From a virus: DNA of 20,797 nt. Both the position numbers and the translations under genes were made by a program. Positions 2,327 through 17,496 of this stretch are shown piece by piece. Where the stretch lies: the IMG/VR virus record IMGVR_UViG_3300029267_001796, positions 1 to 20,797 of that record, one strand, 5' to 3'. The notes under the pieces are model-generated. The model was not told where the DNA came from, did no database searches, and saw only the letters and a list, made by a program, of their open reading frames with translations. Every line of letters begins with the position of its first letter. Positions within the stretch are counted from its first letter, which is position 1.

Positions 2327-3040
2327 CTATTCCTCCAGAAGGGAAGTGATGCCCTTTCGGATTCCGTCACGAACCCATGGGAGCATCTGCTTAGCTGTAG
2401 GCCATAGTCTTCGGTGTTTATGTTGCCTTGAAGCGTACTCGACTTCTGTTCCTATTGTAATCCGGTCCTTCTGGAGGGAAAAGACCTGGTTGGGCGATGG
2501 GTCGTAGTGTTCCCGGGAGACATGACCCGGTTTTAGGCTTCTTTCCAGGTCATGGCTGACAATCAGGATGGGCACTTTTCGACCACCGAGGACTTCCAGC
2601 TTGGTTTTTGCCCCCCGGGATTTGAGGATTGCCCAGGCCAGTTTGGCTGCGATTTGCTTGGCTTGGGCTTCCCCCACACGGGAGGATAGGCGTTTGAAGT
2701 TCGATGCGAAGATTGCCTTCCATTGTCGATTTTGGGCAGCAGTGAGAAGCCCCCGGCCTCCGCGTCCTAGCCCTTGAATCCCGAGAGCCTTACGCTCACC
2801 AGGTCGTATGGGCCTCTGTGCAATGGTTGACCGGGCCAGGGGCTTCCACTGGTTCCCAAACTCATCCCGTCCACCTTTCGATTTGACCAGAAAGGCTTTG
2901 TGGATTTGAGTGAATAGGTAGTGAACAAGGTAGACGGCAACAAGCCTTGTGTACTGCTCTTCTCTGGCGGAGAAGGCAGCACCAAGCCGGCGTTTCAACT
3001 GGGCCCGGGTGTGGGCCCTGATGTTGATTGTTGTTGCCAT
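2327..3040 (-). CDS. Tail completion / virion morphogenesis protein, Mu gpG or HK97 gp10-like
   Basis: The 237-aa protein starts at the ATG at 3040, which overlaps the upstream stop as TAATG; a start further upstream would intrude more into that gene. The N-terminal half is a long charged helix. Then comes GNQWKPLARSTIAQR, the W-x-P-L-x-x-x-T pattern common in phage virion morphogenesis (gpG-like) proteins, a GLLTAAQ segment corresponding to the usual L-x-x-S/T-G-x-L region, and near the C-terminus ITIGTEVEYASRQHKHRRLWP, matching the usual iGt-x-x-x-YA-x-x-H pattern close to the end. Such proteins complete the tail or neck so that heads and tails can join. It lies in a run of head-tail joining genes. 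The family match is by eye; the region between 95 and 160 is longer than usual. Confidence 0.65.
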   Translation of the reverse strand: MATTINIRAHTRAQLKRRLGAAFSAREEQYTRLVAVYLVHYLFTQIHKAFLVKSKGGRDEFGNQWKPLARSTIAQRPIRPGERKALGIQGLGRGGRGLLTAAQNRQWKAIFASNFKRLSSRVGEAQAKQIAAKLAWAILKSRGAKTKLEVLGGRKVPILIVSHDLERSLKPGHVSREHYDPSPNQVFSLQKDRITIGTEVEYASRQHKHRRLWPTAKQMLPWVRDGIRKGITSLLEE

Positions 3041-3546
3041 TACCACCACTCATAGACGTAATCCGGTTCGACGTGTTCACCGGAGTAAACACCGCCTGTG
3101 GAGATTTGTTGGACCGTGCGAATCTTGGGTACTCGGAAGCGATGATCCACGCGGTAGTTTCTCATGGACGGGGTAAAGTCGTCCCGCATGGGCAAGCGGG
3201 GAATGCGGAACGTGCCAGACCCAACCTGTTCAAGTTGGGCCATGACACGTTCATATTGAGACTCGAACTGTGGTGGGTTGCCACGTCGAGTGGAAAGGAG
3301 GTACGCCCCGATGATGGAAGCAACACGGCGTACCCATTTGTTGTTTGTTGCGTACTCCTCATCATACCAGCGTAGAATGTAGAGGTTTACAACGTCCGTC
3401 GCTTCGTCTACGATGTCATCCCATACGTTGGTCTCGGCGGCACCATCGCTGTCGTCATCTGCACGATACAAGGCACCTGTTACCGACCAGAGACGTTCGA
3501 TCTCGGTTTGGGACGTGTAGGTGTAGGTTAAGGTTTCGACTGCCAT
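3040..3546 (-). CDS. Head-tail connector protein (gp36/DUF1320-like)
   Basis: The start at 3546 is chosen because GGAAGGTAGCACT lies just upstream; an in-frame start five codons earlier would remove that site. The 168-aa product begins with a short segment, then helices: VWDDIVDEATDVVNLYILR and NKWVRRVASIIGAYLLSTRR, followed by GNPPQFESQYERVMAQLEQV and a basic, strand-rich tail ending YEWW. Two to three helices of an all-alpha connector followed by a proline- and arginine-rich tail are typical of small head-tail adaptor proteins such as Mu gp36 or HK97 gp6, which form a ring under the portal. The stop overlaps the next ATG by one base, indicating translational coupling. Family membership is inferred from helical pattern and position. 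Confidence 0.6.
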   Translation of the reverse strand: MAVETLTYTYTSQTEIERLWSVTGALYRADDDSDGAAETNVWDDIVDEATDVVNLYILRWYDEEYATNNKWVRRVASIIGAYLLSTRRGNPPQFESQYERVMAQLEQVGSGTFRIPRLPMRDDFTPSMRNYRVDHRFRVPKIRTVQQISTGGVYSGEHVEPDYVYEWW

Positions 3547-3561
3547 AGTGCTACCTTCCAA

Positions 3562-4746: not shown

Positions 4747-5943
4747 CTATTGCGAGATAGCCCGGTCATAAGCACCAACAATGCTCACCTCGTCTCCAGT
4801 ATCCCCACCACTTTCCCCAGTGACGGAGATTCCTTGAACCAGGGAGTTGATCTTGCCCGAGGTTGTCCAGGAGTTGCGGAGAACATCCAGGGCAATGACG
4901 TAAGCAGCCACATCACATGTACCAGCAGGACCACCGGAGGTGTCGGCGTCTACCGTGATAGATGTGTCACCCACTGCTGTGATTGTATTGACTCCGCTGA
5001 AGTCGGTACCTGTCTTACAATCACTGATGAACACCTTATCGCCCGCAGACAAGCCATGCCCCGAGGGCATGGTAATCACTGCTTGGCTGGCGGAAGTGTA
5101 TGCCGTATCATTTTGGGCTGCGGTTCTACTCTTGATCCGCACAATCTCGTTGGTGGTTCCTTCCTCCAGAAGGAGCAGGTTATCATAGGTGGCGGATTCA
5201 AGAATACAAGCATACGGTATCGAGTCCCCCTCAGAAGCCCCCCCTGAAGGCAGTGGGATTGCATACTGACCACTGGCCACAGCACATGGGAAAGCCCAAC
5301 GATGGGGGTAGAGGTATTGGGAAGTGGTACTGCCGTTTGGCACCACGAAGGTCAGGCTTGCGATAGAGCTATCTGCCAGGGTAGCAGTGTAGGTAAGAGT
5401 CCAATCAGCCCCAATGGTGTTCTCGGGTTTGACGTAGAATTTGCCTTGGGTTACCTTGTCGGTATCAAGGCTTGTCGTTTCACTGGTTGGAGTGGAATCA
5501 CCTTTCTCAAAGACGTTGAAGATGATTCGGTCACTATCCCCACTTGGGTATCTTGTAAACACAAGCTCGGGGTCCGGATAGACCGGCAAGAGTTCTGCAA
5601 TCTCTTGCGGACACCGCCACATGTACGAGTTAAGAAGATCGTCGAAACCCAACACGTCGGCAGACGTTCCACCATAGGTGTACGTGAAGCCTTGCTCAAT
5701 GGCATAGTTCACCTTGTCGTATGACCATGCCCAGACTAGCGAGCGGAGGGCAGTTTCCGGATCGTCCAGTACGTCGTCAATGGAAGACACCAGGCGGTTT
5801 TTGCAGGCACACTCATAGTCTTCATCCGCCGCACCATCGACGATGGAGAAGAGAGAGGGTGAGTGGGTGAAGGCATTGCGGACCTCAAAGATGCACCTCG
5901 CAAGATGGTCCATTTCATCACGAATCGTGGATTCAACTGACAT
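4747..5943 (-). CDS. Unassigned virion protein with a beta-rich C-terminal domain (398 aa)
   Basis: The ATG at 5943 overlaps the stop of the GH56-like gene as TAATG, so the two are translationally coupled. Residues 1-135 are helical and contain aromatic clusters (SLVWAWSYDKVNYAIEQGF) and Cys in YECACKN and YMWRCPQE. From about residue 140 onward the protein is beta-rich with many Thr, Ser and Gly. Around residues 295-345 there is the pattern MPSGHGLSAGDKVFI followed by NTITAVGDTSITVDAD. This HGL-x-x-GD-x-V ... I-x-x-V...T-x-x-V-x-x pattern recurs in tail and structural proteins of many phages as a small beta-barrel. The function is unknown. Position between a probable glycosidase and neck genes suggests a virion component. 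Confidence 0.7.
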   Translation of the reverse strand: MSVESTIRDEMDHLARCIFEVRNAFTHSPSLFSIVDGAADEDYECACKNRLVSSIDDVLDDPETALRSLVWAWSYDKVNYAIEQGFTYTYGGTSADVLGFDDLLNSYMWRCPQEIAELLPVYPDPELVFTRYPSGDSDRIIFNVFEKGDSTPTSETTSLDTDKVTQGKFYVKPENTIGADWTLTYTATLADSSIASLTFVVPNGSTTSQYLYPHRWAFPCAVASGQYAIPLPSGGASEGDSIPYACILESATYDNLLLLEEGTTNEIVRIKSRTAAQNDTAYTSASQAVITMPSGHGLSAGDKVFISDCKTGTDFSGVNTITAVGDTSITVDADTSGGPAGTCDVAAYVIALDVLRNSWTTSGKINSLVQGISVTGESGGDTGDEVSIVGAYDRAISQ

Positions 5944-6920
5944 TAGCTAGGTTCCTTAGAGAGAAGGGTAAATACTTCCGAGATCAGTTTATCAATGGGT
6001 GGCGTCCCTTCCATCAAGAGCAGGCTTCGTAGTGCCTGCCACCAGTCTGCATTTTCCTCCCAGGTTGGGTAGTCTTCGCACCCGTAGTCTTTTTGATGCC
6101 AGAGGGCTACGCCATCTCCGAGGTAGTAGGCTAGGTGAAGGAATGGAATGAAACGGTGGTAAGGGACTCGTTGATCCTTGCCGGGGGTCTTCCAATGATC
6201 GTACCACCATACGGAGAGGAACGGGTACACGGGTTTGTTGTATCGTCTGGCTTCCCGGATAAGACAGGCTAGGTACTGGTGTTGTTGGTCTTGCTCCCAC
6301 CAAGGGATGTAGTTTCCGTTCCAAATGGTACCGCCAAACATGTAGTGGTGTGGAAAGATGAGATGGGGTTGTTCCGCCATTATGGCAAGTTGATCGTTGA
6401 TCGAAGTCCACTCATCACGGAATTGCCACCACCACCCACTATGACAGCACGGCAACATACTCCACCAGCCCCATTGTACATCGGGGCGTTCCGCCTTGAT
6501 GATGTCCCCTATGCGAATCCGTTTCTCGGCAATGTTCTGGCGGAAAACAGGCTGCTTGAGTTCATCATCATACCAGTAGGGTTGATAGCCGTGTTCCGGG
6601 TCTTCAGGTTGTTCCTTGTCCTCTAGGTCACAGATCAGTATGCGGTTTTCAGGGACGTTTGCAAGCCGGGCCTTGAGGGAGTCTTCGTCGATCCAGACGG
6701 GATCGTAGTTGCCCACACCGAAGAAATGGTTGCCGAATACCCAATAAGGGATCTCCATTCCCCATTGTTCTGCATGGGCGTGCTCGAAGTCCCATGGGTT
6801 AGGGTAGTCGGGATGGTTGAATGAGAAATGGGTGAACACCCTCTTTCCATGCTCCCGAAAGGAAACAGCATTGCGGGGCATGTCTAATTTGGATGCTAGA
6901 TAGTCCGTGAGGGTGCTCAT
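5943..6920 (-). CDS. Putative GH56-like (hyaluronidase-fold) TIM-barrel glycosidase
   Basis: The 325-aa product resembles GH56 hyaluronidases at several landmarks in the right order. ILICDLED at residues 94-101 supplies the D-x-E pair (D98, E100) corresponding to the family's IDWE catalytic motif. VQWGWWSMLPCCH at 148-160 corresponds to the WGYY-x-x-P-x-C segment. INDQLAIMAEQPHLIFPHHYM at 174-194 corresponds to the ND-x-x-x-W...-x-LPS-x-Y strand. IREARRYNKPVYPFLSVWWYD at 221-241 corresponds to the EA-x-R...-P-x-x-x-Y strand, and LGDGVALWHQKD to LGA-x-G-x-x-x-WG. Trp, Tyr and His are very abundant. There is no signal peptide. The start follows AAGGAAAGCA and lies 8 bases after the beta-helix gene stop, so it may act with that protein in degrading a host-surface polysaccharide. 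The substrate is unknown; a different retaining TIM-barrel family is the alternative. Confidence 0.6.
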   Translation of the reverse strand: MSTLTDYLASKLDMPRNAVSFREHGKRVFTHFSFNHPDYPNPWDFEHAHAEQWGMEIPYWVFGNHFFGVGNYDPVWIDEDSLKARLANVPENRILICDLEDKEQPEDPEHGYQPYWYDDELKQPVFRQNIAEKRIRIGDIIKAERPDVQWGWWSMLPCCHSGWWWQFRDEWTSINDQLAIMAEQPHLIFPHHYMFGGTIWNGNYIPWWEQDQQHQYLACLIREARRYNKPVYPFLSVWWYDHWKTPGKDQRVPYHRFIPFLHLAYYLGDGVALWHQKDYGCEDYPTWEENADWWQALRSLLLMEGTPPIDKLISEVFTLLSKEPS

Positions 6921-6928
6921 TGCTTTCC

Positions 6929-9130
6929 TTATGCAGCGTCAGGGGTAATGGCCCCTTGATCGGCCCCGGCATTGGTGAAGCCACGAAGAATCCATTCCGT
7001 GGCGGAGATGCACTCGACAATGTAGTGGGAGTCAGCAGGTAGGGCGGCTTCGTTGGTTCCATCACTATTAACGTTGTTGATCTTTACGTTGGAGCTTGCT
7101 ACTGTGCGAAGTTCGCATCCGGTAGCATCTGTGATGAGGGTGATCTTCTGACCTACGGTCGGCGGTGGTAGGGTCACGATGTGGTTGGCATTGCCGGAAG
7201 TGATCTCTGCGGTGATGTTTCGACAGGTGGTGATCTTTCCAGTTGTGAGACCGTCGGCAGTAGCGGTAAGGGCTAGGGTTCCTGTTTTGAAGTAGCGGGC
7301 AGACTCGGGAAGGATGTAGATGTCCGGGGTCGTTGCTACGCTGTCAGTAGTGTAAGCAGACTCAGCAATGGCGACTACGTAGTCACCGGCTTCTGCTAGC
7401 TCGAAGGCACCGTCACCACCGAATTCGCCGTCAATTTCAAGCTCATCCCCGATAGCGATGTTGTCGTTGCCGTCTACTGCTGCATTTGCGGTAAAGCCCT
7501 CTGTCTGCAACCAGCCATAGTCACTATCCGGAATGGTAGCATCCTTTACTACAATGCCAAGAAATCTCTCAGCACTCTCTGAAGTACAAATTTCAACTTC
7601 TTCGGCAGTATCCCCAAGCCCCACTCTACGTTGCATGGCGTAGTAGCGGGTCAAGGCTCCGCCGGTGTTGTTCAAGACGTAGCGAATATCCGTTTGTTCA
7701 TGTGGTAAGGTACCGGAGTTGTCCTTGATTACGTTGCAGCCCGCATAGTAGTGGGTGAGGTCAATTGTGGTTTGCCCGGTTCCATCCATGCGGAACGAAT
7801 TCCCCGTGATGGAATTCAAGTAGTGCTCCATGTCGATAGCTTTGGCATTGTTGCCGAGTATGGTAAAGCAGTTGCCCACAATGGAATTGAAATACCCGGT
7901 GTTTACGTGCAGGGCGGTTTGTACATCGTTGGCGATAAGCTCGAACGAGTTGCCCACGATGGTATTCCCATAGCCCACACCAGTCAGGTACATCAAGCCA
8001 GGAGGATCGGTGTCATTGTCATAGAACCGATTGCCTACAATGGTATTCCTATGGGCCCCGAACATTTTTACTGCATAGGCATTCTCACTTAGGTTTGCCC
8101 AGCAGCCATTAAGAGTTACCCTGGTACTGCGGTGCATGACAACCGCATGGCCATGATTATTCGTTATCATAGCGTTGTTGATGCAAGCCTCATCACCTGG
8201 GGCAAGTACGATACCATTGCCATAGCAGCCTTCCTGCCAACAGTCTCCATTCATGCGAACCCCATGCCCGTGATTGATGGTGACCCCATCCCCTCCCGTA
8301 TACCAGACACTTACATTCCTAATATCAATCTCAGCCGTCCAACGGGAAATAACAAGACCATTTTCTCTCGCATCGTAGGCTACTGCTGTGGTCTGCGGCA
8401 CAATGTCAAAGTTATGCAGCCTCACACCCCACACCAAGTGAGAAGCATCATAGCCGTCTTCCAAATGGATTGCAGAGCAATGGGCCCCGGTTGCCATACG
8501 TAGGGTGGTAGCCCCTGTGTCTGCACCTTCCAGGCTAACCTGGGAGGGCACCTCCAAAGCCGAGACAACACGGGTAAAGGTAAGGGTGTCTGGATTCCAG
8601 TTGGTTGTTAGACGACCGTTGAGCTCAATAGTGTCCGGGGTTCCAGAGGTTTTTGCGGTAACCGTGAAAATTACATCGTCTTCACTATCTGCCGGGTCAA
8701 CTCCAGCACCATCATGGGAAAGGCGAAGCAATTCACCTACGTTCACATCGGCAATTGTCCCCGTGGTCCAAGCAGAAACCGCAAGGGTTGTCGGGCTTCC
8801 GGAAGTAGTACAAGTACCTTTCCAGATAGTCTTGCCGGTAGGGTCAGCATAGAAGTATTCTCCAGGGGTGAGCTTCACCACTCCACCCCCATCGGTGCCT
8901 GCCTGAGTCAAAGCCTCTTGGATCTGGATGTTATCTGCGGTGCCATCACATTGCCGCCAAGCAACGAGTTTCCACAACCAGCCTGCATCGGCAGATGCAA
9001 CAACGTATTGTCCGGTAAAAGAGCGGTAGGCTGTCCTGGATAAACCAGGGCCGGCGACGGTAAAGCCAGAGGCAATCAGGATGATGATTACAATTGGTCG
9101 CAAGAGGAAGGTTTTGATACGGTTGAACAT
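6929..9130 (-). CDS. Membrane-anchored right-handed beta-helix protein (tailspike-like)
   Basis: This 733-aa protein starts with a basic cap and a hydrophobic segment at residues 9-26 (LLRPIVIIILIASGFTVA), a membrane anchor or uncleaved signal. Residues 58-95 (W-R-Q-C-DG-x-A-DN-x-x-I-Q-x-A-L...GG-x-V-x-L-x-PG-x-Y) are the usual opening of pectate-lyase-type beta-helices. Many short turns with NTIVGN, NSIVGN and NSITGN repeats follow to about residue 480, as in NosD/tailspike solenoids. Residues about 510-610 resemble a DUF2190-type head decoration domain (DELEIDGEF..AEAGDYVVAIAES). About 650-720 is a small beta-sandwich (IVTLPPPTVGQKITLIT...EWILRGF). Such proteins usually bind or cleave polysaccharide. 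The start follows CGGAGTTGATTCC. It lies 47 bases after the 156-aa membrane protein and just before the GH56-like gene. Confidence 0.75.
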   Translation of the reverse strand: MFNRIKTFLLRPIVIIILIASGFTVAGPGLSRTAYRSFTGQYVVASADAGWLWKLVAWRQCDGTADNIQIQEALTQAGTDGGGVVKLTPGEYFYADPTGKTIWKGTCTTSGSPTTLAVSAWTTGTIADVNVGELLRLSHDGAGVDPADSEDDVIFTVTAKTSGTPDTIELNGRLTTNWNPDTLTFTRVVSALEVPSQVSLEGADTGATTLRMATGAHCSAIHLEDGYDASHLVWGVRLHNFDIVPQTTAVAYDARENGLVISRWTAEIDIRNVSVWYTGGDGVTINHGHGVRMNGDCWQEGCYGNGIVLAPGDEACINNAMITNNHGHAVVMHRSTRVTLNGCWANLSENAYAVKMFGAHRNTIVGNRFYDNDTDPPGLMYLTGVGYGNTIVGNSFELIANDVQTALHVNTGYFNSIVGNCFTILGNNAKAIDMEHYLNSITGNSFRMDGTGQTTIDLTHYYAGCNVIKDNSGTLPHEQTDIRYVLNNTGGALTRYYAMQRRVGLGDTAEEVEICTSESAERFLGIVVKDATIPDSDYGWLQTEGFTANAAVDGNDNIAIGDELEIDGEFGGDGAFELAEAGDYVVAIAESAYTTDSVATTPDIYILPESARYFKTGTLALTATADGLTTGKITTCRNITAEITSGNANHIVTLPPPTVGQKITLITDATGCELRTVASSNVKINNVNSDGTNEAALPADSHYIVECISATEWILRGFTNAGADQGAITPDAA

Positions 9131-9177: not shown

Positions 9178-9648
9178 CTACTTGCCGTAGAACAAGACGT
9201 TCAAGTGAACGGTTCCAGCCTCGGCGTCAACGACCAGGGATTCAAGATCGCCCTGATACCATCGCTCTCCGCCGATAGAAAGCAGCATTCCGGTAGGCGT
9301 TGCACCCACGGGTGTACCGCCGTCGTCTTGATAGCGGATGTTGCCGTCCTCTGCCTGGATGTAGGCGAGGTATGCCCCTGTTGGAATGGATGGGGTTCCG
9401 GTTGCAGCCGTACCATCCAGAAAGACAGGAGTGCCGGAGACTACGGCAAGCCGGGAATACGATCCGGTAATAGGACGGTACTCGCTCTGAATAACCGCTG
9501 TTTTTGCCAGACCGATACCCGTTCGGGCTTCGACTTTCTGGAGGAGAAAATCCTGCAAGGCCGTTCCGACTGCAATCCCAACGATGATGCAGGCGATGAG
9601 GCCGATTGCTAGACGGAACTTGTTGGTGTGGATAGGGTCGTTGTTCAT
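9178..9648 (-). CDS. Small virion-type protein with N-terminal membrane segment (156 aa)
   Basis: The product has a short polar N-terminus, a hydrophobic helix at residues 14-34 (LAIGLIACIIVGIAVGTALQD) and a beta-rich C-terminal domain. The segment GNIRYQDDGGTPVGATPTGM followed by a W-Y-x-GDLE strand and a closing VHLNVLFYG strand matches a small beta-barrel pattern (R-Y-x-DDG-x-x-P-T-x-x-G-M-x-L) that is frequent in short phage structural proteins downstream of capsid genes. The start follows TTTGGAGAATCAAA and sits only 13 bases from the U-tract of the terminator of the capsid gene. A virion decoration or head-joining role is inferred; the membrane segment is unusual for that role. Confidence 0.65.
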   Translation of the reverse strand: MNNDPIHTNKFRLAIGLIACIIVGIAVGTALQDFLLQKVEARTGIGLAKTAVIQSEYRPITGSYSRLAVVSGTPVFLDGTAATGTPSIPTGAYLAYIQAEDGNIRYQDDGGTPVGATPTGMLLSIGGERWYQGDLESLVVDAEAGTVHLNVLFYGK

Positions 9649-9729: not shown

Positions 9730-10950
9730 CTACGGGAAGTTGATTGTGCCGTCAACAACTGCCCGGGGGATGTAAAGGGCGGGCAGGCAGTTGTCGACTT
9801 CAATCAGATCAAAACCAGAGGGCTGCGTCGTCGGTTCAGCCCATCCAGCGAGGCCAAAGCGTTCTGTCGATTGGGCAACCACGTTTTCCCGAACCAGTTC
9901 GGAACCTTCGTGCAACTCGAACCAAACAGGGCTCGGGTCGGGGCAGAAGTAAGCGTGGTCGTCTGGCACAAACTTGGCGAAGGCGTAGGCCGAGGTACCA
10001 TCCCACACCTTAAGGCCACCATCGTAGACGTGCCAGGTGAGCCAAGGCATGGGCCGAAGAACGATGTCGAATGAGGTATTGCCGTTAATCCTGTCGGGAT
10101 CTCCCGGATCTCCCCATCCGGGGCTGACCCGATAGTCGGTCCACACCGCATTGGCCGATCCGCACGCATTGCGAATCTCCGTGTTGTTGATGACCCAAAC
10201 CCAGGTGGATGAGTTGATCCAGACGTGGCGGAGCGGCATACCGTGCTGGACCTCGAATGCAGCGTTCAGCAGGTGCATCTGAGTCAAGATCGGTGCGTTG
10301 GTAGTGTCCGACCATTTCAGGGTTGCCGTGCCGTTATCGAAAAGCTGTTGAGCCGCATTGTAGCTCGTTGGGATGAGCTTGTTCGCATCCAAGTCCGTCA
10401 TCTCGCATTCGCCGAGGTTGCCGGCAGGAACGCGGTAGTTGATTTCGGGACTGGTCGGTGTTGCGGCATCCCGGAGCAGGATGTTATCGCCTTGCAAGTC
10501 CAGATCGAAACCGCCACGGAACATGCGGGAGATCATGAACTCCCGGGCGTTGTAGAACCGCTGGGCCAGCGTTTCCTCCTGCCTGGTCACGTAGCGTTGT
10601 CCGCGGTTGTCGATTTCTCCCCAGGGACGACCAAGCGGGCGGGTACGATAGAGGCGGGATTCCTCCAAGTGCTTCTTTTCGTGCCCACGCCACATGGTTG
10701 CCGAGACGTGCCCGATTTTCTGCAAGGCAACAGTCGCCGGGCCGGAATCCAAATCGCGGCCGGTGGCAATGTCTCGCACGTTGTCCATGATGTCCCAGCC
10801 GGTAGCATTGCCACCAACCGGATTGATATTGGGACCTCCCGGGAGGCACCCAAGGAATCGTTGGAACACCTGTTGCGGTGTTCTGATCCTGGAGATGACC
10901 CGAGTTACAACCGGGGCCTTCAGGACTTGGGGAAGTGTGATGTTGGCCAT
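9730..10950 (-). CDS. Major capsid protein, probably lambda gpE-type (HK97 fold)
   Basis: The 406-aa product has the length and layout of major capsid proteins of the gpE-like group (PF03864 type). It has a short N-terminal arm with RTPQQVFQRFLG, a strand/helix region with GWDIMDNVRDIATGRDLDSG, a long basic helix (MWRGHEKKHLEESRLYRTRP), the ETLAQRFYNAREFMISRMFRGG helix typical of the gpE central region, and a beta-rich C-terminal half with many Trp. It follows a protease-scaffold and a decoration gene and precedes a strong terminator, exactly the lambda C-D-E order. The start at 10950 is preceded by TTTGGAGACCTTCC. A stable hairpin sits upstream of its leader. About 400 copies per particle would be expected. 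The family was assigned by eye from pattern and context. Confidence 0.75.
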   Translation of the reverse strand: MANITLPQVLKAPVVTRVISRIRTPQQVFQRFLGCLPGGPNINPVGGNATGWDIMDNVRDIATGRDLDSGPATVALQKIGHVSATMWRGHEKKHLEESRLYRTRPLGRPWGEIDNRGQRYVTRQEETLAQRFYNAREFMISRMFRGGFDLDLQGDNILLRDAATPTSPEINYRVPAGNLGECEMTDLDANKLIPTSYNAAQQLFDNGTATLKWSDTTNAPILTQMHLLNAAFEVQHGMPLRHVWINSSTWVWVINNTEIRNACGSANAVWTDYRVSPGWGDPGDPDRINGNTSFDIVLRPMPWLTWHVYDGGLKVWDGTSAYAFAKFVPDDHAYFCPDPSPVWFELHEGSELVRENVVAQSTERFGLAGWAEPTTQPSGFDLIEVDNCLPALYIPRAVVDGTINFP

Positions 10951-11047: not shown

Positions 11048-12595
11048 TTAGGCAGCGTTACGCTCGATTGCCTGTCCACGAACGGTAATGGAACGTGCGG
11101 CTCCGGCCAGATCCTCAACGGCGATGTACGGGATCAAGTCCGTGGTATCATCCAAGGCAGCCGAAGTCTCAACGTGAACGCCGTTGATGTAGAACCGGGC
11201 TTTCCGGTCATTACCGATAGCGATCTTGAGATGGTAGTCGGTGTTGGCAAGAACATCTACGTTCGTGTCATGCTCATCATCAGCACCGATTGCAGCCCCG
11301 GACGAAACCGCGAGCCATTGGGTGGTAACAGTCGCATGGTCAGTTCGGTACCAGAAGCAGGCTTGGTCTGCGTCAGTACCGATAGCAGAGGGTGAAGCTA
11401 CTGCCAGTTTAAGGCCGGCAATGATTGCCATGTTGGTGACAGCAGCACCCGTCCGAATACGGCACTCCCAGATAGTTTCCTGGTCAGTGCCCCAGGTGAT
11501 GTTGGCCCACGGAGTCAGGTTTGTGTCCTGATGTGGGCCGAGAATTACCTGGTCATTACCACCACCGTCCGTCTCTAGGGTAATGCCACCTTCGGCATCG
11601 TAGGTCACGTCATCGTCAGATGCACCGGTACCACTGATCTCGAAGTGTGGATCACAGACCAGCATGGCTGCAATCTCTGCCGCCGTTGCACCATCGTTTC
11701 CATCGTCGGCGGAGGAAGGTGCAATGGAGGCGTTGAGTTGCGGCAGACCGAATTCCCCGGCAGTCCATTCCAGCCGATAACGGTTGCCGGAGAACTTATC
11801 CACGTCACCTTGACTGTGAATGGCGATGTACTTGGTTGTCGAAATGCCGATGATCTCGACAAACTCGCCAATATGGGGCTGCATGGCAACGGCTTCACAG
11901 GTCGCATCCCCATCGGCGATGATGGGTGCCCCGGAGGCTGCCATGATGATAACTTCATTCGGGTTTGCAACGTAGAACCCGAAGCGATAGCCCTCTTTAG
12001 GCCCTGTGGCCGGCAAGGTGAACGTGACGCTACCGGTTGCCCCGTTGTTGGTGAAGAGGACGTTGTTGTCCGCTTCGACAAGCGTGGCGTCTGCGGTAAT
12101 GTCGCGGGTGTCACGCCATCCACCGAAGACGTTCATCTGCGGCTCATCGTCGAACACGGCACGGTTCTGGAATTGCTGGCGAACCTGTTGCTCCCAGTTC
12201 TGGCCGTTGATGCCACGGGTGGTGGTGCCCGAAACAATGAAGCCGGAGGGCTTCATGGGACCGGCAACCATGATGTGACCTCGGAGTCGATCCAGGTTGG
12301 CACCGGCGGCTTGCATCTTCTGCTCGTGCATGAGCACACCGAAGATGTACTGGGTGCCGTCTGTTGCGGTGGAATCCCACTGCTTGAGCTTGCCGGTGGA
12401 TGCTACCTTGCCCATCAAAAGACCGGCAGGGAGCGTGTCCAGGTCGGTTCCACCGTCGTTGTAGCGTGAGGCACCGTCGATAAGGCAGGGAAGGGTAATG
12501 ACGTTATCACGCCGTCCCCACCAAATGATGTCCTCAGTGTTGAAAAGGGCTTCCCGGATTCCGGGGATCGCGGAATGATACTCGAAATTCAACAT
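11048..12595 (-). CDS. Capsid decoration protein fused to beta-sandwich and lectin-like domains
   Basis: The 515-aa protein looks modular. Residues 40-125 (LPAGLLMGKV...WDSTATDGTQYIFGVLMHE...RGHIMVAGPM) resemble the lambda gpD-type head decoration domain, where small trimers stabilise the capsid. Residues 165-265 form a beta domain (SVTFTLPATGPKEGYRFGF, then EVIIMAASG, CEAVAMQPHIGEFVEIIG). Residues about 300-512 resemble a concanavalin A/LamG-type jelly roll, with WANITWGTDQETIWECRIRT, ACFWYRTDH and DYHLKIAIGNDRKARFYING as typical strands. It sits between protease-scaffold and capsid genes, as gpD does. Lambda gpD is only about 110 aa, so the two C-terminal domains are additions that would project from the capsid and could bind glycans. 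The start follows TTAGGAGAGTCCA. Confidence 0.7.
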   Translation of the reverse strand: MLNFEYHSAIPGIREALFNTEDIIWWGRRDNVITLPCLIDGASRYNDGGTDLDTLPAGLLMGKVASTGKLKQWDSTATDGTQYIFGVLMHEQKMQAAGANLDRLRGHIMVAGPMKPSGFIVSGTTTRGINGQNWEQQVRQQFQNRAVFDDEPQMNVFGGWRDTRDITADATLVEADNNVLFTNNGATGSVTFTLPATGPKEGYRFGFYVANPNEVIIMAASGAPIIADGDATCEAVAMQPHIGEFVEIIGISTTKYIAIHSQGDVDKFSGNRYRLEWTAGEFGLPQLNASIAPSSADDGNDGATAAEIAAMLVCDPHFEISGTGASDDDVTYDAEGGITLETDGGGNDQVILGPHQDTNLTPWANITWGTDQETIWECRIRTGAAVTNMAIIAGLKLAVASPSAIGTDADQACFWYRTDHATVTTQWLAVSSGAAIGADDEHDTNVDVLANTDYHLKIAIGNDRKARFYINGVHVETSAALDDTTDLIPYIAVEDLAGAARSITVRGQAIERNAA

Positions 12596-12655: not shown

Positions 12656-13192
12656 TCACTCTTTTCTGGAGGGAGAAGCAAGGCCAGCGTTTTGAAGTTG
12701 TGCGTCTGCCGCTTTGTCCGCATCTTCCTCGGAAATGGCATTCATGCCGCTTTCCAACATGGACTCGGGGATCTCTTGCTCGAAGGCAAAGCGAAGCCCT
12801 TCGGGTTTCTTGGGCGATCCGTTTTCGTCGGACAGGATGCTCGCAAGGGAACCGAACCCCGTGGAATTGGAAGGCAGGTCTTCCAGGATTCCAAGCACGT
12901 TGTCCAACTCCGTGGTGGCTTGCTTGCCGTCTGCACCAAGGCTGAACTCGAAGGCTTCGATCATCGGCTTCAGCTTATTGGTTGCAACGGCCGGGGTGAT
13001 GCGACCTTGCTCCACGAGTCGTTCGACCCGGGACACGTAGGTCTTTTTGGCAGAGTCGGTGGCGAAGGCCAAGGCGTGCTTGACGGTATCGTCCTTTGCC
13101 TCGGCTTTGCCGACGATTTCCTGGAATTGCTTGCACTCGTCTTCGGAGGCAAACTCCAGGGACTTGCCGTCCTGTGATACCTTGACTTTCAT
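12656..13192 (-). CDS. Possible nested scaffold protein from an internal start
   Basis: Inside the protease-scaffold gene, the codons for M-G-E-N-L-M contain GGGAGAGAACCTG immediately before an in-frame ATG at 13192. This closely resembles the ribosome binding site of the tail tube gene (GGGAGAACCTAATC). Translation from here would give a 178-aa scaffold beginning MKVKVSQDGK without the protease. Nested, in-frame scaffold genes are known in lambda (Nu3 in C) and Mu (Z in I). The acidic linker just upstream is the expected junction. Confidence 0.5.
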   Translation of the reverse strand: MKVKVSQDGKSLEFASEDECKQFQEIVGKAEAKDDTVKHALAFATDSAKKTYVSRVERLVEQGRITPAVATNKLKPMIEAFEFSLGADGKQATTELDNVLGILEDLPSNSTGFGSLASILSDENGSPKKPEGLRFAFEQEIPESMLESGMNAISEEDADKAADAQLQNAGLASPSRKE

Positions 13193-13972
13193 CAGGTTCT
13201 CTCCCATAGCGATTGGAAGTGGTTTCTCAGTGGGTTTGCCGGCTTGGTCTTGATTTTGACCGGCCGGGGTACCCTCCGATGTCTGACTGCCCTTGATGGC
13301 TTGAACTGCGGTGACGATGCGTTCCACCACATTCTCTGCGTTCGTGTCGCTTGGAAGAACGACGCCAACTTGAGCAAGGGCAGCAACAGCATCCGAAACG
13401 GATGCGTTGTTCGCTTCGATGGACCCGGCTTGATTCTCCGGTTCCTTTGGTTCCTGAACGGTGTCGGCGAAGAGGAGTTGAGAAAGTGCAAGGGCCATGG
13501 CGGGTTCGCCCTTGTGCTTCGTCTTCACTTTCTCGAAGTTGGTCTGCCCGGGGGTAACGGGGTGGGTGACCAAGGCAACGTGCATCATGCTCTCGCCCCA
13601 CTCACGCCCCATGCCGTCTTTCCAGTTGGGCAGGACGTAGGGCGAAACCTCTTGGACGGTGGTGCCGACTTTGGAAGCGTCTTCGTCTCGGGGAACGTCA
13701 AGCTGGCCGTACAAGGAACCATCCTTGGCTTGCCATATCTTCTCCCAGAAACCAGCGTTGTTGTCGGCAGCCCGTTCTTCCTTGGAGAGGGGTTTGGATG
13801 CGTCGTGCTTCCAAGGGGCGGGGATTCGCAGCGGGTTCTCGGCGGAGGTCATTTGATCAAAGGCCGTTGCCCACTGCTTCAGTCGATCATGGCTCAGATG
13901 AACACGTTCGGGTCCGGTGGGGGTTGAAGCCTCATACGTGCCCGGTCGGGCAATGAGCTTGGTGAACTTCAT
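12656..13972 (-). CDS. Prohead protease-scaffold fusion (Mu gpI-like)
   Basis: The start at 13972 is chosen because GGAGGAAACA directly precedes the ATG; 438 aa result. Residues 1-145 resemble Mu-like prohead proteases: FTKLIARPGTYEAS at the N-terminus, PAPWKHD (H56, candidate catalytic His), a DGSLYGQLDV strand, QEVSPY (S110, candidate nucleophile) and SMMHVALVTHPV, the usual strand that closes this fold. Residues 155-260 are a low-complexity acidic linker with many Gln, Ala and Thr. Residues 261-438 are charged and helical, typical of a scaffold. The protease would cleave the scaffold and itself during capsid maturation. A likely internal start at 13192 would give the scaffold alone. It is the first gene after a sigma70-like promoter and is followed by decoration and capsid genes. 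Confidence 0.75.
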   Translation of the reverse strand: MKFTKLIARPGTYEASTPTGPERVHLSHDRLKQWATAFDQMTSAENPLRIPAPWKHDASKPLSKEERAADNNAGFWEKIWQAKDGSLYGQLDVPRDEDASKVGTTVQEVSPYVLPNWKDGMGREWGESMMHVALVTHPVTPGQTNFEKVKTKHKGEPAMALALSQLLFADTVQEPKEPENQAGSIEANNASVSDAVAALAQVGVVLPSDTNAENVVERIVTAVQAIKGSQTSEGTPAGQNQDQAGKPTEKPLPIAMGENLMKVKVSQDGKSLEFASEDECKQFQEIVGKAEAKDDTVKHALAFATDSAKKTYVSRVERLVEQGRITPAVATNKLKPMIEAFEFSLGADGKQATTELDNVLGILEDLPSNSTGFGSLASILSDENGSPKKPEGLRFAFEQEIPESMLESGMNAISEEDADKAADAQLQNAGLASPSRKE

Positions 13973-14024
13973 TGTTTCCTCCGACAATATAGATGTCTGC
14001 GGATCGGACCCTGTTCTGTTCCTC

Positions 14025-14054
14025 ATTCTATTTGTGCAATTTCAGGTTGGTCAA
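14025..14054 (-). promoter_or_regulatory. Sigma70-like promoter for the capsid operon
   Basis: On the minus strand TTGACC (5 of 6 consensus bases) is separated by 18 bases from TAGAAT (5 of 6). It points at the protease-scaffold gene, whose ATG is about 45 bases downstream of the expected transcription start. No equally good promoter is visible for the divergent plus-strand gene. Confidence 0.6.
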
Positions 14055-14150: not shown

Positions 14151-15587
14151 ATGGCACTCTCTTATGACCATCTGTTCCGTGACATCGGCGAAGTAATTGA
14201 GGCCATTGATGACCTGCTGGATTTCGCCGATGGAACCGCTGCAATCGACCTGGTGAACATGGAAGATGAGATCAGCGACCAGTTCATCGACGAAACGGAT
14301 CTGGGGGATGGGGCTCTGGCTGCCAGGTATGACGTGCTAAGTGGTACGTCTGAGATGTTCATCGGATTCAAGGATGCTGTGATTGGCTGGATTACCAGCC
14401 TCGGCTCTCTGGCGGAAGAAAGGCTACGGGATTATGACACCGTGCTGGATGAGATGAACCTGACGAAGGACGTGACCACGGAAGACCTGCTGGAGGAACT
14501 GTATCGGAAGATGGTGGACGATGGAGAAGACGTGGACCAGAGTACGGTGACGGTTGGTGCTGCCACGGTGATTGATGGGAACGGGGATGGGGTGGTACTC
14601 AACACGAAACTGTTGGATGGATCAAGTGCCCCAAGTAGCGGCTGGCCTGTCATTCCTGATTATGCCCAGGACTTGAGCAATGCGGCCGGGGCAGGAAGAA
14701 TGCCTGGCGAGAACGCAGCCTATACGGGAACGGATTCGGAATTGGGTGTGGTCAGTGAGACCATGACCTTGACGTGCATTCAGGATTCGGAAACGGATGG
14801 GGTGGATGAAGGATCGGAAGTGTTCTCCTGGTCAGGAGAAGAAGGGGATGAGAATTACAGTTGGGAGGCAGAAGGAAGTGGGCTAGGCCCTAGCGTGACC
14901 GTAGCGAATGGGGCGGGGATCATTACGGATGGGGAGTTCGAGTATTTCACAAGTGACGACCCGGACTATTGGACAATCGACAATGGGACGGCTTCAACCC
15001 ACATCTTGGAGAACACTGCAAGTGAGCATCGTGGTAGTGCTTGCTTGGAGTATGCTGGCGATGGGGCACAAGCTACCATTGAAATCCATCAGGATGTGTC
15101 GGACTTGACGCCATTGCGGAGGTATTTCGTTGGTTGTTGGGTGAAGGGGACGGCTGGAATTGTGGCAGGTGATTTGACGATTGAGATGGAAGGGACGGGA
15201 TACACGGCGGGGACAACGGAAAAGATCAGCATGAACTCAGCAGCCCTGGCTGCTCAAGTAGCATGGGATGAGGAGTATTTCTTCTTCACGGCACCGGCTG
15301 AAATCCCAAGCGACTTCAAGCTGGTTGTGAAGGTGGAGAACACCCTGACGAATGCAAAGAGTGTTTACGTGGATGGGTTGGCGTTGGCACCCGTCGAGTA
15401 CCACGGTGGCGTTGGGGTTGCGATCCTTGCGGGCAACGCGAAGTTTATCCGAGGGGATCGGTCCACATTCACCGTGGCAAACGACGCTGCTGGCACGTTC
15501 CAGGAGTTCTTCCGAAAGAACTTCAGGGTCCAGTTGCCAAGTGACGGGGCTGCCGGGGAAAGCATTTCCGATGCTTGGGCAGAGTAA
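14151..15587 (+). CDS. Acidic protein with carbohydrate-binding-type domain, only plus-strand gene (478 aa)
   Basis: This is the only convincing gene on the plus strand. The start follows AAAGGAATTAGCCC. Residues 1-125 are helical and acidic (IGEVIEAIDDLLDFADG, LLEELYRKMVDDGEDVD). Residues 130-250 are low-complexity, Gly/Ser/Asp/Glu-rich with short strands. Residues about 256-418 look like a CBM4/9-type jelly roll: DGEFEYF, then W-x-x-DNG-x-AS, ENTASEHRGSACLEYAGDGA, IHQDVSDLTPLRRYFVGCW and a closing SVYVDGLALAPV. Residues 420-478 form a C-terminal tail with an FRKNFRVQLPS segment. A sugar-binding virion accessory protein is the best guess. It sits between terminase and protease genes, where a portal gene is normally found, and ends 14 bases before the end of the convergent 117-aa gene. 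Confidence 0.8.
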   Translation: MALSYDHLFRDIGEVIEAIDDLLDFADGTAAIDLVNMEDEISDQFIDETDLGDGALAARYDVLSGTSEMFIGFKDAVIGWITSLGSLAEERLRDYDTVLDEMNLTKDVTTEDLLEELYRKMVDDGEDVDQSTVTVGAATVIDGNGDGVVLNTKLLDGSSAPSSGWPVIPDYAQDLSNAAGAGRMPGENAAYTGTDSELGVVSETMTLTCIQDSETDGVDEGSEVFSWSGEEGDENYSWEAEGSGLGPSVTVANGAGIITDGEFEYFTSDDPDYWTIDNGTASTHILENTASEHRGSACLEYAGDGAQATIEIHQDVSDLTPLRRYFVGCWVKGTAGIVAGDLTIEMEGTGYTAGTTEKISMNSAALAAQVAWDEEYFFFTAPAEIPSDFKLVVKVENTLTNAKSVYVDGLALAPVEYHGGVGVAILAGNAKFIRGDRSTFTVANDAAGTFQEFFRKNFRVQLPSDGAAGESISDAWAE

Positions 15588-15975: not shown

Positions 15976-17496
15976 TTAGGATACGACCATCGGTGTATGA
16001 TCGCTTTGATCGTTTGGTACCTCGAACAAGCTGGCACCACAGGACGTTACTAATTCGAGGAAGCAGATACCGGCATAGGCCAGTGTGTCTACTTGGTCGG
16101 CAGTTTCCTTTGGATCACCTGTCCAGGTGAATATCTCTTGTTCCCATTTGCGAAGCCATGGGGCGTACTTTTCTCTGGGGAAGAAAACCTTCCCACGTTC
16201 CATCTGATTGGCCGCGGTGGTGGCACGCACGAGCTTGTCCTGTGATGCGGGGCGAAGGTCCTTGACCGGGAAGCCTTCTGCCGCTAGGAGTTGGAACAAG
16301 CCGATGCCCAAGCCGTTGGCTTCAACACCGACGAAGAGTAGCCGGCCGGAACCCATGACCTTCGGTAAGTTGGAGCCCGGTTGGTTGGTCGCGTGCTTCC
16401 GGCAGTTCATGCGGATGCGTTGTAGGACCTCGGGGGTTTCTGCTTGGAAGCGGTCTACATCCCATAGGAGCAGATCCCATTGGGGCGTGATGCACCAAGT
16501 AGAGATGACGGTCCAGGAGGGTTCACGCTGCCATAGCAGTGCATCCGCCGGACCTTCCCGAACAGAGGCAGCAGGGTCAATGGTTTGGAAGAACACGCAA
16601 TCATGGACGTAGTGGGTGCGTCCGTCCTCAAGGACGATGACCAGGTGGTCGTCCGTGAAGCCATAGTATTTAGCCCAGGACCTCCGGAAACGACTGTCGG
16701 GACTGACGCCCCAGTCACCGTTTAGAAGTTGTTCGCGGGTAATGGGGTCAAGCTCTTGAAGGGATTCGATGTATTCCCCTTGATCGAGGAATGGGTTGTC
16801 TGAAATGAAGGCTGGGATGTGGGGACGTTGGGGGTGGGTTCCCCGGTAGATAGGCCCAACACGTTCGATCTGGAAACGCTCTTGAACCCAACCATGACCT
16901 ACACCACCGGGGTTGGAGGCTGAACGAACACGCAAGGGGATCTTGGACTGTTGGGCAAACTCACGACAGGTAGGGCAGTTGGGATTGGGCTGTTGTTGGT
17001 GTTCGGGACAATGGCCCCTACGAAGACGGGAGAACAGGTAGGTGTAGTCCCATTCCCAGTGCTGTGTGAGTTCATCGAAGCCGATGAATTGGAAGGCCGA
17101 TGACTGATAGCGGTACCGATCCATCGGGCCATTGAGGTAGCCGAACTGTAGCACGGCACCTGACGGGAACGTCCATTTGTTGAGTGAACCATTCCAATGG
17201 GCGTCCGATTGAGAAAGCCACTGGTGAGAGCGTGGGATCAGGGCTTCCTCAAGTTGTAAGTCGGTGAGGGTCTTGCGGAACAGTAGGGCAGAATAGCGTG
17301 GTACGTCCACGTATTGGAGGGCTGCCATTAACAGGGCGTCCGACTTGCCACCACCTGCCGCACCCCCATAGAACGCTTCCCGATGAGGTAGCATGAGAAA
17401 GCATAGTTGCCTGGCTGTTGGCCGGTGTGGGATGTACTCCGACCAGTGCAGACATCGCCAGAACTTTCGTTGTGCCTCAATCGGGATAGCAGTCAC
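15976..17496 (-). CDS. terL: Terminase large subunit (TerL)
   Basis: The 506-aa packaging motor subunit has a Walker A motif GGAAGGGKS at residues 44-52, an adenine/arginine strand ALLFRKT at 70-76, a Walker B FQFIGFDEL at 135-143, the coupling motif RSASNPGG at 191-198, and a probable RNase H-like nuclease start QTIDPAAS (D307), with a second acidic strand DLLLWDVDRF (residues 341-350). It cuts concatemeric DNA and drives it into the prohead. Between Walker B and the coupling motif is an insert with HC at 162-163 and CPTC at 174-177, which could bind zinc. It begins at a GTG that overlaps the upstream stop as TAGTG; no ATG and only a weak ribosome binding site are nearby, so translational coupling is likely. 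Confidence 0.93.
   Translation of the reverse strand: MTAIPIEAQRKFWRCLHWSEYIPHRPTARQLCFLMLPHREAFYGGAAGGGKSDALLMAALQYVDVPRYSALLFRKTLTDLQLEEALIPRSHQWLSQSDAHWNGSLNKWTFPSGAVLQFGYLNGPMDRYRYQSSAFQFIGFDELTQHWEWDYTYLFSRLRRGHCPEHQQQPNPNCPTCREFAQQSKIPLRVRSASNPGGVGHGWVQERFQIERVGPIYRGTHPQRPHIPAFISDNPFLDQGEYIESLQELDPITREQLLNGDWGVSPDSRFRRSWAKYYGFTDDHLVIVLEDGRTHYVHDCVFFQTIDPAASVREGPADALLWQREPSWTVISTWCITPQWDLLLWDVDRFQAETPEVLQRIRMNCRKHATNQPGSNLPKVMGSGRLLFVGVEANGLGIGLFQLLAAEGFPVKDLRPASQDKLVRATTAANQMERGKVFFPREKYAPWLRKWEQEIFTWTGDPKETADQVDTLAYAGICFLELVTSCGASLFEVPNDQSDHTPMVVS

What the first reader, a model, noticed from the sequence alone, without database searches (positions are those of the whole stretch)
5943..6920. 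GH56-like hyaluronidase-fold enzyme in a phage virion module
The protein shows, in order, the D-x-E catalytic pair, the WGYY/P-C-like segment, the ND...P..Y strand, the EA.R...P strand and the G-x-x-x-W strand that characterise GH56. Known phage hyaluronidases such as HylP are beta-helix lyases, not GH56, so a tail-region GH56-like hydrolase would be unusual and may target a host-surface glycosaminoglycan-like polymer.
Basis: partly seen in the sequence, partly recalled or inferred. Interest (0 to 1): 0.7.

Follow-up and report, generated by a model that had tools for sequence, protein, structure and literature searches.

The report
Phage enzyme resembling animal hyaluronidases
A virus of microbes carries a gene distantly related to the hyaluronidases of animals and venoms (glycoside hydrolase family 56), with most of the catalytic residues kept; it most likely cuts a sugar coat of the host cell, a job that known phage hyaluronidases do with an entirely different protein fold.

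Summary
The 325-aa protein (window 5943-6920, minus) has no direct hit in Pfam, PHROGs, NCBIfam, PDB sequences or 50,697 phage records. Three relatives on IMG/VR contigs (L167, L168, L169) tie it in (BLASTP to L168 1e-9; profile probability 97%), also after the motif used to find the first relative is masked (94%). Two relatives pass the Pfam GH56 cut-off. The profile of this protein plus relatives finds only GH56 hyaluronidases among 177,635 PDB sequences (bee venom, 4e-10). The AlphaFold2 model of relative L168 (pLDDT 68) has GH56 enzymes as its six best solved-structure matches (Z 13.8-16.1). D98/E100, Y193 and W274 align with GH56 catalytic residues, but the position of Tyr202/184 is Trp (W153), and the protein itself does not match PF01630. 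So: GH56-like, a divergent variant, not a formal member. A bacterial relative looks secreted and sits inside a capsule/exopolysaccharide cluster, so a surface-polysaccharide depolymerase is the best explanation. Hyaluronan as substrate, virion location and activity are unproven; its own fold was not modelled well (pLDDT 38).

The parts
5943..6920 (-). GH56-like hydrolase gene, 325 aa (P0001)
   Evidence: ORF; homology chain to GH56
6923..6930 (-). Shine-Dalgarno-like AAGGAAAG before the ATG
   Evidence: sequence
6627..6629 (-). Asp98 codon, matched to GH56 Asp129/111
   Evidence: invariant Asp in phage and bacterial relatives; role from PMC13080975
6621..6623 (-). Glu100 codon, matched to the GH56 acid/base Glu131/113
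   Evidence: invariant Glu in phage and bacterial relatives; role from PMC13080975
6462..6464 (-). Trp153 codon at the position of GH56 Tyr202/184 (substitution)
   Evidence: Tyr in every other sequence compared
6342..6344 (-). Tyr193 codon, aligned with GH56 Tyr247/227
   Evidence: invariant Tyr in relatives and GH56
6099..6101 (-). Trp274 codon, aligned with GH56 Trp321/301
   Evidence: invariant Trp in relatives and GH56
6929..9130 (-). adjacent beta-helix protein with an N-terminal hydrophobic segment, likely spike or depolymerase partner
   Evidence: NosD E 8.8e-9 and Beta_helix E 2e-7; hydropathy 2.29 at residues 8-26
4747..5943 (-). downstream gene whose start overlaps the stop of the GH56-like gene; weak major-tail-protein match
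   Evidence: phrog_584 E 1.6e-5; overlap

Best explanation
The gene encodes a single-domain TIM-barrel glycosidase of a phage and bacterial side branch of the GH56 (hyaluronidase) clan. Shown: homology, the conserved D-x-E, Tyr and Trp of the active site, and the gene context. Inferred: it hydrolyses a beta-linked polymer that contains N-acetylhexosamine on or around the host cell, by the GH56 route: Glu100 donates the proton to the glycosidic oxygen, the substrate's own 2-acetamido group attacks the anomeric carbon, Asp98 steadies the oxazoline(-ium) intermediate, and water then opens it. It would be carried by, or act with, the beta-helix protein encoded next to it to clear capsule or exopolysaccharide at infection (or be set free at lysis). 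The likely source is a secreted hydrolase of a bacterial exopolysaccharide cluster.
For: Homology of P0001 to phage relatives: BLASTP 46.6 bits to L168, 43 bits to L167 (2000 shuffles at most 30.8 and 27.3); hhalign probability 96.8 over residues 60-301; it holds when the motif used to find the first relative is masked (94.1%, P 1.3e-7). GH56: the profile of P0001 plus relatives against all PDB sequences hits only 1fcq 4e-10, 2atm 1.4e-5 and 2pe4 2.4e-5 at significance; L168 25.4 and L169 33.2 bits against the PF01630 cut-off of 23.2. Fold: L168 model pLDDT 67.6, pTM 0.69; Foldseek best hits all GH56, 2.6e-7; second look Z 16.1, rmsd 3.5, 237 aligned. Catalytic residues: with PMC13080975. Surface-polysaccharide role: relatives sit with a GDSL esterase (L168), a polysaccharide-deacetylase-like ORF and tail genes (L169), or behind a fibre-like N-terminus (L167); the bacterial relative L171 (E 2.6e-39) has a signal-peptide-like start and lies among Wzy_C, Wzx-type, pyruvyl transferase, glycosyltransferase, GDP-mannose dehydratase, Wza- and Wzz-like genes.
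Against: P0001 itself matches no Pfam model, even at E 10. Its own model is useless (pLDDT 38). Tyr202/184, whose mutation harms GH56 enzymes (PMC13080975), is Trp153. No signal peptide and no fibre or virion-anchoring domain, so the virion location is a guess. The nearest relatives of the window's head genes (L006, L007) lack the gene. Substrate unknown.
Confidence: 0.62

Rival explanations
1. GH56-like fold but not a hydrolase: a binding protein (lectin-like spike or adhesion accessory) that kept the groove and lost efficient catalysis.
For: Tyr202/184 replaced by Trp153; 22 Trp in 325 residues suggests sugar stacking.
Against: D98, E100, Y193 and W274 are all kept across very distant relatives, which is not expected of a dead enzyme.
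Confidence: 0.17
2. Lysis enzyme: acts with neighbouring membrane-anchored proteins to break a cell-wall glycan at release.
For: The slot after the capsid gene holds a papain-like and a metallopeptidase-like ORF in relatives L007 and L006 (read by eye, not by profile); neighbours 6929-9130 and 9178-9648 have N-terminal hydrophobic segments; no signal peptide on P0001.
Against: Relatives sit with carbohydrate esterase, deacetylase-like and fibre-like genes, and the bacterial relative sits in an exopolysaccharide cluster; no wall-binding domain.
Confidence: 0.13
3. Metabolic or biofilm enzyme released into the surroundings, unrelated to adsorption.
For: Related, probably secreted bacterial proteins occur in Verrucomicrobiota and Bacteroidota outside phages.
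Against: Encoded in the middle of the virion gene block, tightly packed between spike-like and tail-like genes.
Confidence: 0.08

Closest known systems
GH56 hyaluronidases (bee venom hyaluronidase 1fcq, Ves v 2 2atm, human HYAL1 2pe4, PH-20 9jub)
   Same: TIM-barrel fold (in relative L168), D-x-E pair, Tyr247/227 and Trp321/301 equivalents, order of strand motifs, ND before the PxxY strand
   Different: Shorter segment between D-x-E and the WGYY strand; Tyr202/184 is Trp; single domain; phage-encoded; P0001 itself below Pfam detection
Uncharacterised GH56-like bacterial proteins (Verrucomicrobiota L154-L161, Bacteroidota L165, Pseudomonadota L171, Burkholderia L172)
   Same: D-x-E, PxxY, KPxYP, DGxxxW pattern; significant profile matches
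   Different: Probably secreted, some with extra domains; Tyr kept at the Trp153 position
Phage hyaluronidases HylP and kin (PL16)
   Same: Phage enzymes that can act on a hyaluronan-type coat
   Different: PL16 are triple-stranded beta-helix lyases (PMC11669647); this is a TIM-barrel hydrolase type

Membership tests
GH56 (Pfam PF01630) | Score over the curated Pfam cut-off of 23.2 bits | tested here: not met
   P0001 gives no match at E up to 10; its relatives L168 (25.4) and L169 (33.2) do pass
GH56 (Pfam PF01630) | Significant profile similarity to solved GH56 enzymes | tested here: met
   As part of the family profile: PDB hits 1fcq 4e-10 and others; alone only weak, P 5e-4
GH56 (Pfam PF01630) | TIM-barrel fold nearest to GH56 | tested here: inconclusive
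   Shown for relative L168; P0001's own model has pLDDT 38
GH56 (Pfam PF01630) | Asp129/111 and Glu131/113 (D-x-E) | tested here: met
   D98, E100; invariant in phage and bacterial relatives. The register to GH56 itself rests on the strand-plus-D-x-E pattern and the model of L168, because automatic alignment across the long GH56 insert failed there
GH56 (Pfam PF01630) | Tyr202/184 | tested here: not met
   W153 in P0001, Tyr in all others
GH56 (Pfam PF01630) | Tyr247/227 and Trp321/301 | tested here: met
   Y193 and W274
GH56 (Pfam PF01630) | Hydrolysis of hyaluronan or chondroitin | not testable with these tools
   needs an assay
PL16 phage hyaluronate lyase (HylP) | Sequence signature of the triple-stranded beta-helix family | tested here: not met
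   No Pfam or PHROG match; homologous instead to a TIM-barrel family

The most novel reading that the evidence does not exclude
Phages of several kinds carry a so far unnamed branch of the GH56 clan, taken from secreted hydrolases of bacterial capsule or exopolysaccharide clusters, and use it as a depolymerase; in this window's protein the catalytic Tyr has become Trp, which points to an altered active site and a polymer other than hyaluronan.
Probability: 0.5. Interest if true: 0.7.

Novelty: new variant of a known kind. Interest (0 to 1): 0.58.

Why it matters
Known phage hyaluronidases are beta-helix lyases, and GH56 is described as an animal and venom family (PMC11669647, PMC12254123). A phage and bacterial branch would widen GH56 beyond animals, give a new depolymerase scaffold, and bear on where the fold of the animal enzymes comes from. 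The papers searched mention no phage GH56; the library is open-access only.

Tried and rejected
Direct searches of P0001: Pfam, PHROGs, NCBIfam, PDB sequences, phages, viral and genome contigs, all empty. Single-sequence structure: useless. Capsid and terminase relatives: L006 and L007 share head genes but not this gene. Pattern EAR.....PVYP[FY]: only T4-type baseplate-hub-like and TonB-like chance hits. P0001 in Verrucomicrobiota: noise. Alignments A4, A6 and A7 put D98/E100 out of register with the relatives' D-x-E; A5, A8 and A9 correct it; in the last global alignment the GH56 D-x-E was itself misplaced, so that column was not used. PL16 lyase and chance resemblance rejected. Actinomycetota with the profile: nothing.

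Full report
What is there. The window is a 20,797-base virus record. Read on the minus strand it runs: terminase large subunit (15976-17496; phrog_979 E 2.9e-63), candidate protease (12656-14026), head decoration protein (11048-12595), major capsid protein of E type (9730-10950), a small protein with an N-terminal membrane segment (9178-9648), a beta-helix protein (6929-9130), the gene in question (5943-6920), a weak major-tail-protein match (4747-5943), then further genes including a Mu gp36-type connector (3040-3561, E 1.2e-6). The gene has a good ribosome-binding site and is packed tightly with its neighbours. It has no signal-peptide-like hydrophobic segment.

First results. The protein, called P0001, matched nothing directly: Pfam, PHROGs, NCBIfam, PDB sequences, 50,697 phage records, IMG/VR and GTDB genome contigs. 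A single-sequence AlphaFold2 model was useless (pLDDT 38).

Bridge through relatives. Searching Verrucomicrobiota genomes with the Pfam GH56 model gave weak hits, one of which opened an uncharacterised family of bacterial proteins with a D-x-E motif. P0001 scored 30.8 against that family's profile, where 100 shuffles reached at most 22.7 and the best other window protein 25.5 over 25 columns. A degenerate DNA pattern from that family, which P0001 itself does not match, found one phage protein on a 168.8-kb IMG/VR contig (L166/L167). It aligns with P0001 over 263 columns at 43 bits, E 2e-9; 2000 shuffles reach 27.3. A last scan gave two more phage proteins and a fragment (L168, L169, L170). P0001 to L168 is 46.6 bits. 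With the pattern region masked, the single-pair score to L166 falls to 27.3 bits, just over the best of 2000 shuffles (25.4), while the profile comparison stays at 94% (P 1.3e-7), so the link does not hang on the motif that was used to find the relative.

GH56. L168 and L169 pass the Pfam GH56 cut-off (25.4 and 33.2 against 23.2 bits). The profile of P0001 plus phage relatives, searched against 177,635 distinct PDB sequences, hits bee venom hyaluronidase (4e-10), Ves v 2 (1.4e-5) and human HYAL1 (2.4e-5) and nothing else of note. hhalign of the phage profile without P0001 against a four-sequence GH56 profile gives 97.2%, score 77.1, against at most 26.4 in 200 column shuffles; adding two bacterial relatives gives 98%.

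Fold. Foldseek ranks GH56 entries first to fifth (E 2.6e-7 to 3.0e-5; TM 0.49-0.62 by query length). In the second look the six best are all GH56 (Z 16.1 to 13.8; bee venom enzyme rmsd 3.5 over 237 residues), above GH164 at 13.6 and GH5 at 12.8. The margin over other TIM-barrel hydrolases is modest, which is usual for this fold; the sequence evidence makes the choice.

Active site. PMC13080975 lists the strictly conserved GH56 residues: Glu131/113, Asp129/111, Tyr202/184, Tyr247/227 and Trp321/301 (human/bee numbering, checked against the sequences). In P0001 these are E100, D98, W153, Y193 and W274. D98 and E100 are invariant in the seven-sequence alignment of phage and bacterial relatives. 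In the L168 model D66 ends the strand 62-66, Tyr104 ends the strand 100-104 and Trp228 lies near the end of the strand 225-229, as a shared active site needs. The Tyr to Trp change is peculiar to P0001 among all sequences compared.

What it does. The GH56 mechanism is substrate-assisted and retaining (PMC12254123, PMC13080975), so the substrate should carry an N-acetylhexosamine; this is inference by kinship. Context points to surface polysaccharide: L168 follows a GDSL esterase (PF13472, 5.3e-12), L169 follows a polysaccharide-deacetylase-like ORF (PF01522, 7e-4, under its cut-off) in a tail-gene stretch, and L167 has a fibre-like N-terminus (the last read by eye). The best bacterial relative (L171, E 2.6e-39, one of 349 Pseudomonadota genomes and the only one of 149 in its family) starts with a signal-like stretch and lies in a cluster with Wzy_C, Wzx-type flippase, pyruvyl transferase, glycosyltransferases, GDP-mannose dehydratase, Wza-type export and Wzz/kinase genes. 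Hydrolases in such clusters usually cut the polymer made there (general knowledge). A phage with such an enzyme could clear the coat of its host.

Limits. Formal GH56 membership of P0001 is not claimed: it fails the Pfam cut-off and one of five catalytic positions. The fold is inferred from a relative with about 20-25% identity. Whether the protein is in the virion, which polymer it cuts, and which organism is the host, are open. The literature library is open-access only.

Noticed in passing
L173:858-15214 (Pseudomonadota genome G612): A GH56-like, probably secreted protein is embedded, on the opposite strand, in a Wzx/Wzy-type exopolysaccharide cluster; only 1 of 149 genomes of the same family has it.
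   Followed up: partly
window 6929-9130 and 9178-9648, minus: Both genes between the capsid gene and the GH56-like gene start with a strong hydrophobic segment (hydropathy 2.3-2.6), unusual for virion proteins of a tailed phage.
   Followed up: no
window 14151-15587, plus: A protein with a weak carbohydrate-binding module match (CBM_4_9, 7.8e-4) is encoded on the opposite strand inside the head gene block; it is conserved, also opposed, in relatives L006 and L007.
   Followed up: partly
window 11048-12595, minus: The lambda-D-like decoration protein carries a C-terminal extension with a faint laminin-G/lectin match (0.029), possibly a sugar-binding capsid decoration.
   Followed up: no
L006:9591-11071 and L007:18455-19267: In the two nearest phage relatives the slot after the capsid gene holds a metallopeptidase-like and a papain-like ORF instead, so this slot seems to swap hydrolases.
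   Followed up: partly
L168:1563-3761 and L170:403-2601: The terminase next to the GH56-like gene appears to be interrupted by an intein-like insert (CFAGETKVLTRYGTYQI... ending VVHNC).
   Followed up: no
L172:804-2681 (Burkholderia arboris replicon): A GntR/UTRA regulator and a SIS-domain protein of the MurNAc-6-phosphate etherase type lie about 3-5 kb from a GH56-like protein, hinting at amino sugar use.
   Followed up: no
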